In this document: positions 49,690 through 53,672 of the stretch, piece after piece
Layout: each line of letters starts with the position of its first letter
Position numbering within the stretch: the stretch's first letter is position 1
Source: Rhodococcus sp. WMMA185
GTDB lineage: Bacteria; Actinomycetota; Actinomycetes; Mycobacteriales; Mycobacteriaceae
Assembly (NCBI RefSeq): GCF_001767395.1
Contig: NZ_CP017014.1
Location: 1,426,001 to 1,490,000, forward strand
DNA length: 64,000 nucleotides
Direction: 5' to 3'
Position numbers and translations under genes: made by a program
The notes under the pieces: generated by a model
Database searches by the model: none
The model's input: the letters and a program-made list of their open reading frames with translations, nothing else
Told to the model about the DNA's origin: nothing

Positions 49690-50298
49690 ATGTCTCTACG
49701 ACGGGTCAGTGCAATGATGTCCGCGATTGGCTTGACGGTTGTATTGGCGAACTTGGCGTTCAGCCCAATGGTCACCGCCACCGTGATGACGGACGATGTT
49801 CCCGCGCATTCGATCAGTACTTTTACCCCCACGGCGAGGGATGAACCGGGCCCGATTATCGGAATGAACGATCTCGTCTTGGAGTCGCCGGAGGGCGCCG
49901 TGAACGGAACTCAGGTGCTCATGGAGCAACCTACCGGAGCCGACAATCAGAATTGGGTCGTCGGCCTTGACGGGCAGCTTTTCAATCCGGCAACGAGCAA
50001 GTGTCTGGACATTCAGACGATGGATGAACTGGGCAATGTGGTCGCGCCCCCTGCCGATGGAACTCTGGTAAATGTGAACGGCTGCAACGGATTCAACACA
50101 CAGGAGTGGCGCCATGACGACAATGTGGTGAACGGTGCGACTTCCGGCGGAGTGATAGGCAATCTCTTCTTCTCGGGAGGCGAGAACATTTGTTTGGCTA
50201 TCGTCGATCCGACCAGCGAGGCTGGATCGCCGCTGGAGGTCACGGACTGTACCGGCGGCTCAGATCAGATGTGGCGAATACCGTTCTTCTCGGACTGA
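49690..50298 (+). CDS. Secreted ricin-type beta-trefoil lectin-like protein
   Basis: 202-residue exported protein. Basic start, hydrophobic segment (about residues 10-30, signal peptide ending near VTA), then repeated beta-trefoil blocks: NWVVGLDGQLFNPATSKCLDI, a second with NGCNGFNTQEWRHDD and a third ending CTGGSDQMWRIP. These Q-x-W repeats with paired Cys are characteristic of RICIN domains. GC content is visibly below that of neighbours and no ribosome site is obvious. No enzyme domain attached. Likely binds a glycan outside the cell; role unknown. Lies in the synteny gap. Confidence 0.75.
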   Translation: MSLRRVSAMMSAIGLTVVLANLAFSPMVTATVMTDDVPAHSISTFTPTARDEPGPIIGMNDLVLESPEGAVNGTQVLMEQPTGADNQNWVVGLDGQLFNPATSKCLDIQTMDELGNVVAPPADGTLVNVNGCNGFNTQEWRHDDNVVNGATSGGVIGNLFFSGGENICLAIVDPTSEAGSPLEVTDCTGGSDQMWRIPFFSD

Positions 50299-50671
50299 TT
50301 TGCGCAAGTTCCGCTGAGGGTTGTCCGACACATCCGACAGTTGACGGCATTGCCAAATGGGCGGCTGATTGTGCATACGTAATCCATATTTGCTGACGTT
50401 TCACGATTGACGTTGCGTAGAGAGGTGTCCGGCGTGAGGAATGGAGGTGCAACTGTTTCCCAAAATTAGAACTCCGTGTTGTTCTGTGGACAAATCTGAG
50501 ACGAGGATGACCGAGTGGGCCGCGGCTGGAGTTTCGGCATCGGCCGCGTTGAACTGGTCGCGCGCGGAATCCCGGCCGCAGCTACGTTTGCCCGCCGGCT
50601 TCCGGTGTGCAGATATCGGAATCGGTTGGCCCGTCGCCCGCGGTTGACAAGCGAGGAGTCGAGACGAAGGG
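50299..50671. other. Non-coding stretch with decayed repeat
   Basis: About 370 bases with no convincing gene. Contains the dispersed repeat at 50444-50497. Base composition is lower in GC than flanking genes up to about 50500. Confidence 0.5.
50444..50497 (+). repeat. Dispersed ~55-bp repeat, copy 1
   Basis: Shares TGCAACTGTT, then AGAACTCCGTGTTGTTCTGT and GGACAAATCT, with the region 61963-62016 inside the second TnpB element (there TGCAACTGTT, GGAATTCTGTGTTGTTTTGT, GGAGAAATCT). About 75-80% identical by eye. Confidence 0.7.
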
Positions 50672-50701
50672 TTGTCTTGTGGGCCAGGCGTCGCCTACAG
50701 T
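50672..50701 (+). promoter_or_regulatory. Promoter of LeuA-regulatory-domain operon
   Basis: TTGTCT (50672-50677) and TACAGT (50696-50701), spacing 18. The expected transcription start is at or next to the ATG at 50709, so the leader peptide is probably translated from a leaderless mRNA. Confidence 0.6.
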
Positions 50702-50708
50702 GTCAGCC

Positions 50709-50750
50709 ATGAAGCGCATCCTCGTAGTTCTCCGCCGTAGCGGGGTCTGA
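50709..50750 (+). CDS. Branched-chain leader peptide (MKRILVVLRRSGV)
   Basis: 13-residue open frame in which six codons are Ile, Leu or Val (ILVVL...V). It lies directly behind a promoter and is followed by overlapping hairpins and then by a gene of the leucine-pathway family, 73 bases downstream. This is the layout of ribosome-mediated attenuation known for ilv/leu operons in actinobacteria. No other function is expected for so short a peptide. Confidence 0.65.
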   Translation: MKRILVVLRRSGV

Positions 50751-50816
50751 TTCGGACCGACCCCCCGCTGCGGGTCGTCGAACTACGTGTTGGTCCCCCC
50801 TCCTTTCAGGAAGACC
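50722..50816 (+). promoter_or_regulatory. Putative attenuator hairpins behind leader peptide
   Basis: Outer stem GTAGTTC (50724-50730) with GAACTAC (50779-50785) encloses an inner stem AGCGGGGTC (50739-50747) with GACCCCCCGCT (2-base bulge). A competing downstream stem TTGGTC (50789-50794) / GACCAA (50813-50818) reaches the ribosome site of the next gene. Stalled or free ribosomes on the leader would choose between them. Folding by eye only. Confidence 0.5.
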
Positions 50817-50823
50817 AAGAGTA

Positions 50824-51384
50824 ATGAGCAATTCCACTTCTTTCGCTGGGTCCTTTCTCGCGTCTGGCCAGGCGGCCGACCCGTTCGCCTTGCTTCGTCA
50901 CAGTGCTTTGCCGTGGGCACTCCGGAATGAATCGGCCGGAATGAGCTGGTCGTCATTCGAGGACACGTACGCGCCGTCGAACGGAAGGCTCCGTCTGGGC
51001 AATTGGTCGGCGACGAAGTCTGGTCTGGGAATGTGGGATTTCGAGGCAACCCTCGGGATAGCCGAATCCATCCGCAAGGTGGGAGCACGGGCGCCGGGAC
51101 CTGTCGGTGCCATGACGTCGATGCTGTACGACGTCGGATTCTCGATCGAGATCTTGTCGTTCCATCGGCACGGAATCAGATACCGCGCACAGGACGATTT
51201 CGTGCACCGCGCACAGGACAATTTCGTGCACCGCGCACAGGACAATTTCGTGCACCGCACGGTCACCTTCTTGCTCTGTGAAAGTGGCGGAACCCGACTG
51301 TGGGCGATGGGAATCGACGAGTCCCAAACGGAATCGACTCTCCGCGCGATGATTTCCGGCGCCAACAGGCTGCAGGCGGCCTGA
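50824..51384 (+). CDS. Stand-alone LeuA regulatory-domain protein (no catalytic barrel)
   Basis: 186-residue protein that aligns by eye with the C-terminal part of 2-isopropylmalate synthase. Residues 40-72 match the linker subdomain (MSWSSFEDTYAP versus MWDAFAEEYLAP in M. tuberculosis LeuA); 70-186 match the leucine-binding allosteric domain: GPVGAMTSMLYDVGFSI, and the end LWAMGID...STLRAMISGANR ([23 protein letters not shown] in LeuA). The TIM barrel with the active site is absent, so it cannot be a synthase alone. Residues 121-145 hold a threefold 8-residue repeat (RAQDNFVH). May bind leucine and act as a sensor, or pair with full-length LeuA; inference only. Confidence 0.75.
   Translation: MSNSTSFAGSFLASGQAADPFALLRHSALPWALRNESAGMSWSSFEDTYAPSNGRLRLGNWSATKSGLGMWDFEATLGIAESIRKVGARAPGPVGAMTSMLYDVGFSIEILSFHRHGIRYRAQDDFVHRAQDNFVHRAQDNFVHRTVTFLLCESGGTRLWAMGIDESQTESTLRAMISGANRLQAA
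51184..51260 (+). repeat. 24-bp minisatellite inside LeuA-regulatory gene
   Basis: Three head-to-tail 24-base units (51184-51207, 51208-51231, 51232-51255) plus 5 bases of a fourth. Units 2 and 3 are identical; unit 1 differs by one base (D instead of N). Frame-preserving. Confidence 0.95.
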
Positions 51385-51389
51385 CGCGA

Positions 51390-51405
51390 AAAGGCAGTTC
51401 AGACC
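51390..51405 (+). repeat. Left half of split terminator hairpin
   Basis: AAAGGCAGTTCAGACC begins 6 bases after the stop codon of the LeuA-like gene. Its exact reverse complement is at 52863-52878, on the other side of the TnpB element. Confidence 0.85.
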
Positions 51406-51413
51406 TGCGTAGC

Positions 51414-52860
51414 GAGGAACCCCGGTCCTTCAGGGCGGGGAGGAATCGCGTCCTCTGGTGGGTCGTGCACGAGTATCTGAACGGCCTCTCCGTCCGTTTT
51501 GGTTCGGGTTTGCGGTTGGTGTCGGTGGTCACTGTTACGGTCCGGGGCATGAAGCAGGTGGTGCGCGTGAAGTTACTGGCTGATGCCCAGCAACTCGACG
51601 CTGTGGTCCGCACCCTGGCCGTGTGCAACGACACCGCCACCCTGGTGGCCCGGATCGCTCACGAGAAGCGGGTGTTCCGTAAACGTGATCTTCGGGCGGT
51701 CACCTATGCCACCGCCCGCGGGCATGGTGGGTTGGGTGCCCAGGTGGCGCAGTCGGTGATCCGGAAGGTCGCTGATTCGTACACCAGCCTGCGCGCCAAC
51801 CTCCGCAACGGCAGGTACGGAGCGAAAGGCTCCCGGCGCCGGGAGCGGGTGGAAAACACGCCGATCCGGTTCCGCCCGGACGCGGCGCAACCGTTCGATG
51901 ACCGGTGCCTGTCCTGGGGGTACGACCCGGGCGGCAGGGGCGGCACGGTGTCGATCTGGACGGTCGACGGTCGGGTGAAGAACCTGCGGTTCGTCGGCCA
52001 CCCCGACCAGGTGGCGATGCTCCGGCAGTACCGGAAGGGGGAAACTGATCTCGTCGTACAGAGAGATCGCCGAGGAACACCGACCGCGTATTTGATCGCC
52101 ACCTGCGATGTGCCCGACCCCCCGGTCGCCTCCGGGGACCATCTGAACACCCCGGACGGGTGGATCGGGGTGGATTTGGGGATCGTGAATATCGCCGTGG
52201 CCTCCGACCGGACACTCGGTGATCACCTCATCGACACCTACGGGGACGGCGCCCCGGACGGCCCTGCCGGGCGGGGTAGCACGAAGGACCGGCGTACCCG
52301 TAACCGGGAACTCCGGCACACTCTGCAGAAAAAGAGCACCAAATCCGCTAAACGGTTGTTGCGGCGCCGGGCTCGGAAGGAAGCCCGGTTCGCCGCCGAC
52401 GTCAACCACCAGATATCGAAGAAGGTTGTGGCCGTGGCTGAACGCACCGGACGCGGGATCGCCCTGGAGGACCTCACGGGCATCCGCGAGCGGGTACGGC
52501 TCCGCAAGCCCCAACGGGCCACGCACTCGAGTTGGGCGTTCGCCCAGCTCGGGGCCTTCATTTCCTACAAGGCCGCCCGGGTGGGGGTGCCGGTGTTGTC
52601 GGTGGATCCGGCGAACACCAGCCGCCGCTGTATCGGGTGTGGTCACATCGACAAGAAAAACCGACCCCACCAGGAGCGGTTCTGTTGTCTCGACTGCGGT
52701 TTCGTTGAACATGCGGATATTGTCGGCTCGCACAACATCGCACACCGAGCCGCCGAGGACTACCGGGCCCAGTCAACGGTCCCTGGTGCGGCGTGACACC
52801 TGACAGCCAGTGGGGTGTTACAACTGCAAGCTCAGTCCTTCAGGGCTGAGTAGTTGACAC
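51414..52860 (+). mobile_element. Lone TnpB (IS1341/IS200-IS605-type) element 1
   Basis: About 1.45 kb. Ends carry the imperfect palindromes typical of this family: left hairpin 51420-51440 (CCCCGGTCC-TTCA-GGGCGGGG) and right hairpin 52831-52850 (CTCAGTCC-TTCA-GGGCTGAG), sharing GTCCTTCAGGGC. Only tnpB is present; no TnpA (Y1 transposase). Boundaries are approximate: left end at GAGGAACCC (also at the second element's left end), right end just after GTTGACAC. Confidence 0.75.
51549..52796 (+). CDS. tnpB: TnpB RNA-guided nuclease (transposon-associated)
   Basis: 415-residue OrfB/TnpB. RuvC catalytic triad appears intact: Asp in IGVDLGIVNIAV (about 205), Glu in ALEDLTGIRER (about 307) and Asp in EHADIVGSHNI (about 395). 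The zinc ribbon CIGCG...CCLDCG lies between the last two. Basic helical segment about 240-290. ATG 51549 with CGGGGC upstream. In this family the 3' end of the gene and the right end make the guide RNA (omega-RNA), whose guide would read the sequence beginning near 52861. No partner TnpA, so mobility depends on helper enzymes. Confidence 0.9.
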   Translation: MKQVVRVKLLADAQQLDAVVRTLAVCNDTATLVARIAHEKRVFRKRDLRAVTYATARGHGGLGAQVAQSVIRKVADSYTSLRANLRNGRYGAKGSRRRERVENTPIRFRPDAAQPFDDRCLSWGYDPGGRGGTVSIWTVDGRVKNLRFVGHPDQVAMLRQYRKGETDLVVQRDRRGTPTAYLIATCDVPDPPVASGDHLNTPDGWIGVDLGIVNIAVASDRTLGDHLIDTYGDGAPDGPAGRGSTKDRRTRNRELRHTLQKKSTKSAKRLLRRRARKEARFAADVNHQISKKVVAVAERTGRGIALEDLTGIRERVRLRKPQRATHSSWAFAQLGAFISYKAARVGVPVLSVDPANTSRRCIGCGHIDKKNRPHQERFCCLDCGFVEHADIVGSHNIAHRAAEDYRAQSTVPGAA

Positions 52861-52880: not shown

Positions 52881-52891
52881 GCGTGAGATGG

Positions 52892-52963
52892 TGCGCGATA
52901 CTGGGATTGAACCAGTGACCTCTTCCGTGTCAGGGAAGCGCTCTCCCGCTGAGCTAATCGCGC
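52892..52963 (-). tRNA. tRNA-Val (anticodon GAC)
   Basis: 72-nt cloverleaf; acceptor GCGCGAT/ATCGCGC, anticodon stem CTTCC/GGAAG with loop CTGACAC, TTCAATC T-loop, discriminator A. CCA is encoded (unlike the second copy). Confidence 0.95.
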
Positions 52964-52980
52964 GGGGATGGGGAATAGAG

Positions 52981-53053
52981 AGCGGACGACGGGATTCGAA
53001 CCCGCGACCCCAACCTTGGCAAGGTTGTGCGCTACCAGCTGCGCCACGTCCGC
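52981..53053 (-). tRNA. tRNA-Gly (anticodon GCC)
   Basis: 73-nt cloverleaf; acceptor GCGGACG/CGTCCGC, anticodon loop TTGCCAA between CAACC/GGTTG, T-loop TTCGAAT, discriminator T. CCA not encoded. Confidence 0.95.
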
Positions 53054-53113
53054 ATTCATGAGAGCCACCGTCTCCGGGGCTCACACTGTCGAGCAGTCTT
53101 ACACCTATCTCGG

Positions 53114-53185
53114 TGCGCGATACTGGGATTGAACCAGTGACCTCTTCCGTGTCAGGGAAGCGCTCTCCCGCTGAGCTAATCGCGC
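53114..53185 (-). tRNA. tRNA-Val (anticodon GAC), second copy
   Basis: Identical over 72 nt to the copy at 52892-52963. CCA not encoded. Confidence 0.95.
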
Positions 53186-53186
53186 G

Positions 53187-53257
53187 AGGTGGAGACGGGA
53201 ATCGAACCCGTGTGCACGGCTTTGCAGGCCGTTGCCTCACCACTCGGCCACTCCACC
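53187..53257 (-). tRNA. tRNA-Cys (anticodon GCA)
   Basis: 71-nt cloverleaf; acceptor GGTGGAG/CTCCACC, anticodon loop CTGCAAA between CGGC/GCCG, discriminator T. One base from the neighbouring tRNA-Val, so one transcript. Confidence 0.95.
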
Positions 53258-53281
53258 GCGAAGGTTGAGTCCAACCTCTCG

Positions 53282-53354
53282 AGCGGACGACGGGATTCGA
53301 ACCCGCGACCCCAACCTTGGCAAGGTTGTGCGCTACCAGCTGCGCCACGTCCGC
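53282..53354 (-). tRNA. tRNA-Gly (anticodon GCC), second copy
   Basis: Identical over 73 nt to the copy at 52981-53053. First gene of the minus-strand tRNA cluster. Confidence 0.95.
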
Positions 53355-53594
53355 ATGCACCGTGAACTCGCGGAGGAATGTTCTCCGTGGTGCGGTTGAG
53401 AACATTAGCCGACCATCCGTGAATCTCACAAATCCGCAGGTCAAGTGATTAGACGGTGGAAGCGGCGTGGATGATGCTGGGTGCACGTCCGTCCAGGGCG
53501 GATCCGATGCGAATCTCGCCGGCGTGATTTTCTTTCGGCCACACGGTCGTGTTAATGTTCCAACTCGTTCGAGCGTGCGTGTTTGGCGCGTCTC

Positions 53595-53666
53595 GGTCCC
53601 GTGGCTCAGTGGAAGAGCGTCCCGTTCACACCGGGGAGGTCGCTGGTTCGATCCCAGCCGGGACCA
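53595..53666 (+). tRNA. tRNA-Val (anticodon CAC)
   Basis: 72-nt cloverleaf; acceptor GGTCCCG/CGGGACC, anticodon loop TTCACAC between TCCCG/CGGGG, T-loop TTCGATC, discriminator A. Divergent from the minus-strand cluster, 240 bases away; that gap holds both promoters and no other gene I can see. Confidence 0.95.
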
Positions 53667-53672
53667 CCGAGT

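What the first reader, a model, noticed from the sequence alone, without database searches (positions are those of the whole stretch)
50709..51384. A leucine-sensor domain without its enzyme, under its own branched-chain attenuator
The 186-residue protein matches only the linker and allosteric (leucine-binding) domain of 2-isopropylmalate synthase; the catalytic TIM barrel is absent, and no barrel remnant is seen upstream. Yet the gene is well equipped: a clear promoter, a leader peptide MKRILVVLRRSGV, competing hairpins. A pseudogene fragment would not be expected to keep its own leader. A free leucine-binding domain could form mixed dimers with LeuA, titrate leucine, or serve as a new sensor. 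This is the best candidate for an undescribed system in the window.
Basis: partly seen in the sequence, partly recalled or inferred. Interest (0 to 1): 0.82.

Follow-up and report, generated by a model that had tools for sequence, protein, structure and literature searches.

The report
Free-standing control domain of LeuA
A soil bacterium keeps a separate gene for only the control part of the enzyme that starts leucine synthesis, under an RNA element related to the one in front of the enzyme itself; the pair is kept across many related bacteria, so it is probably an undescribed regulator of branched-chain amino acid synthesis.

The parts
50672..50701 (+). inferred promoter: -35 TTGTCT (50672-50677), 18-nt spacer, -10 TACAGT (50696-50701)
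   Evidence: by eye; similar hexamers in orthologues by eye; not scored by the consensus scan
50709..50750 (+). leader ORF MKRILVVLRRSGV*, probably leaderless (AUG about +1; inference)
   Evidence: 7-nt gap between -10 and AUG
50723..50730 (+). segment A, codon run CGUAGUUC, pairs with D
   Evidence: 52-81% of cells paired in the three helix pieces of A:D
50735..50745 (+). segment B CCGUAGCGGGG, pairs with C
   Evidence: modelled 7-bp core paired in 99.3% of cells
50754..50761 (+). segment C1 GGACCGAC, pairs with E (pseudoknot / anti-sequestor)
   Evidence: paired in 164 of 164 cells with letters on both sides; 4 Gordonia rows have a gap at the outermost pair, where their letters (C, A) do not pair
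50763..50773 (+). segment C CCCCGCUGCGG, pairs with B
50780..50787 (+). segment D GAACUACG, pairs with codon run A
50789..50796 (+). segment E GUUGGUCC, shared by C1 and by the SD hairpin
50808..50816 (+). segment F AGGAAGACC, holds the Shine-Dalgarno sequence, sequestered by E
   Evidence: (83.3% of cells)
50824..51384 (+). stand-alone LeuA-type regulatory-domain protein, 186 aa
50914..50970 (+). residues 31-49: two helices in the position of LeuA linker subdomain II
   Evidence: model; VIA alignment of model 18-184 to LeuA 439-643
50989..51378 (+). [quoted passage not shown]
51182..51258 (+). 24-bp tandem repeat, 3.2 copies; gives a 24-aa insertion in the loop equivalent to the leucine lid of LeuA

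Best explanation
The gene encodes a conserved, free-standing LeuA-type regulatory domain that acts in trans, most likely by pairing with the regulatory domain of full-length LeuA and so changing how LeuA divides 2-ketoisovalerate between valine and leucine. It is made under a LEU-type translational attenuator. While the leader is not held up, codon run A pairs with D, the SD is held in hairpin E:F, and the gene is off. When a ribosome stalls on the Leu-Val-Val codons, A is covered, D is released, and C1 (in the loop of hairpin B:C) pairs with E as an H-type pseudoknot; E can then no longer hold the SD and the gene is on. Shown here by sequence: the domain, the selection on it, the element's homology with that of leuA, and the conserved pairings. 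Inferred: the switch, the aminoacyl-tRNA sensed, and the action on LeuA, including whether it restrains LeuA or protects it from feedback inhibition. My split: gene family and LEU-type element about 0.95; expression induced by branched-chain shortage about 0.7; action on LeuA about 0.45.
For: Fold and homology to LeuA linker plus regulatory domain only. Purifying selection (12 pairs, dN/dS 0.04-0.29). Wide conservation and one clade. Related RNA element before leuA and before this gene: in the own genome the model gives two hits at E <= 10, these two; of 132 stand-alone genes typed from the rows listed, 110 have it within 500 nt upstream; of the 40 other R1 hits typed, 17 lie 1.39-1.42 kb upstream of a LeuA domain listed, 19 of 20 fetched carry a LeuA ORF, 3 were not checked. 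C1:E paired in 164 of 164 cells, with one two-sided change and six G-U to G-C changes; C1:E stronger than the local E:F hairpin in 29 of 32. Once A and B are covered and F is not yet made, forced C1:E costs 0.1 kcal/mol or less in 6 of 10 leaders. Leader: Val-Val in 22 of 28 distinct peptides versus 0 of 8 for leuA; LLL in 0 of 28 versus 8 of 8. 2-ketoisovalerate as shared precursor of Val and Leu is textbook knowledge. Precedent for an isolated regulatory domain of this fold with a bound branched-chain ligand: LiCMS structures 3f6g/3f6h (titles).
Against: A nested-structure calculation did not show a clear switch: the chance that the SD is open stays at or below 0.053 at every ribosome position in 14 of 15 leaders, the window's at or below 0.003; L041, without a clear SD, is 0.05-0.14 throughout. 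Only L005 shows a clear rise of the expected kind, from 0.001 to 0.03-0.05. In complete transcripts forced nested C1:E costs energy in 39 of 40 state-by-leader comparisons. The shuffle control for C1:E is modest (33 of 500), and the other helices show fewer pair types than the shuffles (500 of 500 at least as high). The family is missing or not found in some genera that keep leuA. No physical evidence for contact with LeuA; the gene is not next to leuA. Pocket residues differ from LeuA.
Confidence: 0.45

Rival explanations
1. A free ligand-binding domain that senses a branched-chain amino or keto acid, or another ligand, but acts on a target other than LeuA, for example in translation stress.
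For: Changed pocket: no Tyr554 in 43 of 43, lid of 8-9 instead of 12 residues in 41 of 43. Residues invariant in the 12 and 14 rows, such as Glu170, are not LeuA residues (Glu170 does vary in the wider set). No leu gene noticed among the largest neighbour clusters printed. In M. abscessus the probable orthologue MAB_3424c is a direct WhiB7 target (PMC10727445, passages), which links it to ribosome stress.
Against: Its RNA element is shared with leuA and, in the own genome at E <= 10, with nothing else; closest solved structure is LeuA.
Confidence: 0.3
2. A leucine buffer or decoy that only titrates leucine.
For: Fold of a leucine-binding domain.
Against: One small protein can hardly buffer a pool that is usually far larger (general knowledge); the pocket is altered; expression is predicted under shortage, when buffering would do harm.
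Confidence: 0.05
3. The leader is a protein-bound or otherwise non-attenuating element rather than a starvation switch; the codons are kept for pairing.
For: For leuA, leader mutations gave effects that did not fit classical attenuation, and Seliverstov et al. 2005 proposed a binding protein (PMC1262725, passages). The SD stays closed in nested folding nearly whatever the ribosome does. No terminator-like site.
Against: Leader peptides keep a Leu-Val core while segment D changes between genera, and the codon class differs between the two genes that carry the element.
Confidence: 0.25
4. A decaying leuA fragment.
For: Sub-threshold Pfam score of the window protein; a repeat insertion in it.
Against: dN/dS 0.04-0.29; matches in 26 of 28 genus genomes; one clade; no barrel remnant.
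Confidence: 0.03

Closest known systems
LEU element of actinobacterial leuA (Seliverstov et al. 2005, PMC1262725: passages and section 7 read, figures not held)
   Same: Leader peptide, stem-loop and downstream pairing that can form a pseudoknot; the model built on the present leaders finds leuA leaders in the same genomes.
   Different: Stands before a gene without catalytic domain; leader is Ile-Leu-Val-Val, not a Leu run; in the folds made here the SD pairs with segment E, whereas the paper describes the Leu codons pairing with the SD.
Regulatory domain of LeuA (Pfam PF08502; M. tuberculosis LeuA 1sr9/3fig)
   Same: Fold, order of elements, part of the linker.
   Different: Free-standing; Gly531 is Ala in 36 of 43, Tyr554 is Phe in 34, Leu in 8 and Ser in 1 of 43; lid shortened in 41 of 43, lengthened in the window protein and L147.
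Regulatory domain of Leptospira citramalate synthase (3f6g, 3f6h)
   Different: In nature part of the whole enzyme (recalled).
Free-standing regulatory subunits such as IlvN/IlvH of acetohydroxyacid synthase (recalled) and HisZ of short-form HisG (PMC9734150, start of abstract in a search listing only)
   Same: Control part encoded apart from the catalytic part.
   Different: Unrelated fold as recalled; here LeuA also keeps its own built-in domain.
M. abscessus MAB_3424c (PMC4974804, PMC10727445, PMC8191103: passages read)
   Same: Labelled leuA, 2-isopropyl malate synthase or hypothetical, although leuA is MAB_0337c (PMC11057210, passage); 'NA' for M. tuberculosis in PMC8191103; ribosome-protected uORF; WhiB7 target.
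   Different: Identity rests on locus-tag logic; its sequence was not seen here.

Membership tests
LeuA regulatory domain (PF08502) | profile score over the curated cut-off | tested here: not met
   window protein 19.6 vs 24.9 bits; a number of 157-198-aa relatives are over it; 9 of 12 members of A2 match at E <= 0.01
[quoted passage not shown]
LeuA regulatory domain (PF08502) | leucine-pocket residues of M. tuberculosis LeuA (G531, G533, L535, A536, V551, Y554, A558, A565, A567; list from PMC2704214 passages) | tested here: not met
   43 stand-alone rows: G533 kept in 41, A536 in 21, G531 in 2, V551 in 1 (Ile in 34), Y554 and A567 in 0 (lid alignment approximate). Binding itself was not tested
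LeuA regulatory domain (PF08502) | binds leucine at a dimer interface | not testable with these tools
   needs protein
LEU element | homologous sequence and structure with leuA leaders | tested here: met
   model R1, trained without leuA leaders, scores the own leuA leader 46 bits, E 1e-8 in 66.8 kb; second of two hits in the genome
LEU element | pseudoknot pairing | tested here: met
   B:C core paired in all but 1 cell of 147 and C1:E in 164 of 164 cells, outermost pair lacking in 4 Gordonia rows; formation in the RNA not shown
LEU element | run of leucine codons in the leader | tested here: not met
   LLL in 0 of 28 distinct leaders picked; Val-Val in 22 of 28
LEU element | base stem between leader codons and SD of the gene | tested here: inconclusive
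   nested folds pair codons with D and SD with E; the paper's figure was not held and this stem was not scored on its own
Classical transcription attenuator | intrinsic terminator before the gene | tested here: not met
   0 terminator-like sites in 50300-51600
2-isopropylmalate synthase | catalytic TIM barrel | tested here: not met

The most novel reading that the evidence does not exclude
A two-gene control circuit at the valine/leucine branch point: leuA is opened by lack of leucyl-tRNA, while a diverged copy of the same RNA element with valine codons opens a free-standing LeuA regulatory domain that pairs with LeuA and spares 2-ketoisovalerate for valine. Enzyme and trans-acting modulator would then read the two competing end products through copies of one RNA switch.
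Probability: 0.25. Interest if true: 0.85.

Novelty: new variant of a known kind. Interest (0 to 1): 0.66.

Why it matters
It would be a separate control subunit for an enzyme that is taught as controlling itself, found across a large bacterial family, and it would explain a widespread gene that (if MAB_3424c is the orthologue) now goes as hypothetical or as 2-isopropylmalate synthase. It also gives the LEU element, for which the 2005 paper left the mechanism open, a second natural context with different codons, which makes the codon-sensing question directly testable.

Tried and rejected

Of the 40 R1 hits away from stand-alone genes, 3 (G114, G099, G165) were not checked and 1 of 20 fetched (L113) gave no LeuA by the longest-ORF test, although its leader and first codons look like those of L112. 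In one search the 28 and 8 peptides are distinct ones that I picked; automatic readings in a wrong frame (L053, L076, L081, L164, L175) were not used as printed, and L165, L169, L170 and L178 gave none. The tree rows include one gene twice (L040 and L090).

Full report

IT IS A REAL, OLD GENE. Matches occur in 26 of 28 genus genomes, own included (the two without a match are assemblies of 1040 contigs, 74% complete, and 610 contigs, 96% complete). In 151 genomes of the family 149 match the profile, which also catches LeuA itself; genera such as g8, g12, g18 and g30 show only weak matches (E 1e-14 or worse; the one row listed for them, G166, is a 606-aa frame), so the gene seems absent there. 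In 246 genomes of the class, matches with E < 1e-25 occur in 19 of the 20 own-family genomes (own included) and in none of the 226 others, where the best is 9.9e-21 in a 648-aa frame. dN/dS by Nei-Gojobori is 0.04-0.29 in 12 pairs, 0.17-0.29 for the three pairs with the window gene. In a tree of 61 regulatory domains the 33 stand-alone rows and the 28 LeuA or LeuA-paralogue rows are split with 100/100 support (midpoint root, several long branches, so the split, not the root, is the result). This fits one origin within the family.

THE LEADER. All 32 non-duplicate orthologous loci carry a short ORF with GGG-GUC as codons -2 and -1 (32 of 32), followed by UGA in 31 and by UGG-AUC-UGA in L041; in most Rhodococcus it reads M-x-R-I-L-V-V-x-R-R-S-G-V. 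The -10 box lies 7 nt before its AUG in the window and also before the leuA leader of the same genome (by eye), which suggests leaderless translation of both leaders (inference). On 21 distinct leaders (A3) the stem B:C is paired in 99.3% of cells, the three pieces of A:D in 52, 77 and 81% (the alignment shifts Gordonia by one codon), the SD hairpin E:F in 83%, and the alternative C1:E in 164 of 164 cells, with one two-sided change and six G-U to G-C changes. Controls: for the first structure no shuffle of 500 reaches the share of paired cells or the number of pairs with two-sided change, 13 reach the covariation score, and all 500 have at least as many pair types; slid versions pair 28-43% against 85.8%. 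For C1:E slid versions pair 19-56% and 33 of 500 shuffles reach the observed values, because most of its columns do not vary.

A RELATED ELEMENT STANDS BEFORE leuA. Model R1 was built only from stand-alone leaders. In the own genome it finds two places at E <= 10: this gene, and the leader of leuA (46 bits), whose peptide reads MQRALLLGCRDGV in the printed sequence. In 151 family genomes 135 have a match. Of 132 stand-alone genes typed from the listed rows, 110 have an R1 row within 500 nt upstream on the same strand. With filters off, R1 also marks the upstream region of four of seven further genes fetched (L204, L205, L206, L208; E 2e-4 to 9e-8). The three small-genome, Corynebacterium-like ones (L202, L203, L207; genus guessed from genome size) have nothing convincing (E 0.87 or worse), though by eye their leaders hold the same order of pairings with other letters (GGACUAACC:GGUUGGUCC in L202). 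Of the 40 listed R1 hits elsewhere, 17 lie 1.39-1.42 kb upstream of a LeuA domain listed and 19 of 20 fetched carry a LeuA ORF, 79-91% identical to the own LeuA; 3 were not checked. The element therefore belongs with the LEU element described for leuA in 2005 (PMC1262725: passages, section 7), whose authors report it before leuA and once within a transposase gene. B:C with C1:E has the topology of an H-type pseudoknot (loop 1 of 7-9 nt, loop 3 of 14-24 nt).

WHAT IS SENSED. The two genes differ in codons: distinct stand-alone leaders average 2.14 Val, 1.39 Leu and 0.5 Ile between the first and the last three residues, leuA leaders 0.38, 3.12 and 0 (28 and 8 peptides). In the 32 orthologues the seventh codon before the stop position is Val in 32. 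So the gene may read Leu and Val, or mainly Val. LeuA consumes 2-ketoisovalerate, the direct precursor of valine (textbook), which makes a valine-controlled modulator of LeuA plausible.

HOW IT COULD WORK. Pairing A:D and pairing C1:E appear to exclude each other, because D would leave one nucleotide (50788) to span the stem (inference from the coordinates). Free leader: A:D/B:C plus E:F, SD closed. Ribosome stalled on Leu-Val-Val: A covered, C1:E formed, SD released. C1:E is worth -12.0 kcal/mol against -9.4 for the local E:F hairpin in the window, and is the stronger in 29 of 32. With A and B covered and F not yet made, forced C1:E costs 0.1 kcal/mol or less in 6 of 10 leaders. Against this, nested-only partition functions keep the SD closed: at or below 0.053 at every ribosome position in 14 of 15 leaders, and in complete transcripts forced nested C1:E costs energy in 39 of 40 comparisons. 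The model therefore depends on the pseudoknot or on folding during transcription; pseudoknot energies and kinetics were not computed.

THE PROTEIN'S LIGAND. PMC2704214 (passages) lists L535, A536, V551, Y554, A558, A565 and A567 around leucine, and G531, G533 and A536 as sites whose change abolishes feedback in yeast. In 43 stand-alone rows G533 is kept in 41, G531 in 2 (Ala in 36), A536 in 21, Y554 in 0 (Phe 34, Leu 8, Ser 1); the stretch between 554 and 567 has 8-9 residues in 41 rows against 12 in own LeuA, 16 in L147 and 32 in the window protein (alignment in the lid is approximate). The M. abscessus A555V feedback-resistance change lies on the loop that closes over leucine (PMC11057210, passages). 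So the site may bind another ligand, bind leucine weakly, or form a leucine-blind partner. The 24-aa insertion of the window protein in this loop comes from a 24-bp tandem repeat; M. tuberculosis LeuA has its own variable repeat in the same domain but between beta15 and beta16 (PMC2704214), which is the next loop by the order of elements in the model.

LITERATURE LEAD. M. abscessus MAB_3424c is called leuA or 2-isopropyl malate synthase, but leuA there is MAB_0337c. MAB_3424c is among genes with a ribosome-protected uORF (PMC4974804, passages), is a direct WhiB7 target (PMC10727445, passages) and has NA for M. tuberculosis in a table of PMC8191103 (passages). This fits MAB_3424c being the orthologue; its sequence was not seen.

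VERDICT. A well-supported, widely kept, apparently undescribed gene and leader; a good functional hypothesis; no proof of function.

Noticed in passing
window 51182-51258: 24-bp tandem repeat (3.2 copies, 98% match) inside the gene, in frame, adding 24 residues in the loop equivalent to the leucine lid of LeuA; not seen in the other 43 aligned sequences.
   Followed up: partly
window 51549-52796: TnpB-type RNA-guided nuclease ORF (NCBIfam guided_TnpB, 156 bits) between this gene and the tRNA cluster; in six Rhodococcus loci the first tRNA follows the gene within about 60-131 nt, in the window after about 1.5 kb, so it looks like an insertion. No TnpA was looked for.
   Followed up: no
window 52889-53668: tRNA cluster Val(gac)-Gly-Val(gac)-Cys-Gly and Val(cac) next to a gene whose leader is rich in Val codons; same order in six Rhodococcus loci and L098, no tRNA found in L040 and five Gordonia loci. 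Possibly coincidence.
   Followed up: partly
window 49690-50298: Ricin-type beta-trefoil lectin with an N-terminal hydrophobic stretch (by eye), weakly like the Rv1419 family.
   Followed up: no
L190-L201, e.g. G121:C9: A second full-length LeuA paralogue (about 600 aa) whose regulatory domain matches the stand-alone profile better than ordinary LeuA does; in G121 it seems to carry its own LEU-type leader (R1 hit C9:5893-6004).
   Followed up: partly
L202, L203, L207: Stand-alone genes of small-genome relatives with a different leader peptide (by eye ...NPGGGRQD* in L202) and no convincing R1 match, but the same order of pairings by eye.
   Followed up: partly
G220, G250, G291 (class scan): R1 hits at E 8e-5 to 4e-3 that are not on the contig of the listed LeuA hit: chance, or further genes with a LEU-type leader.
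   Followed up: no
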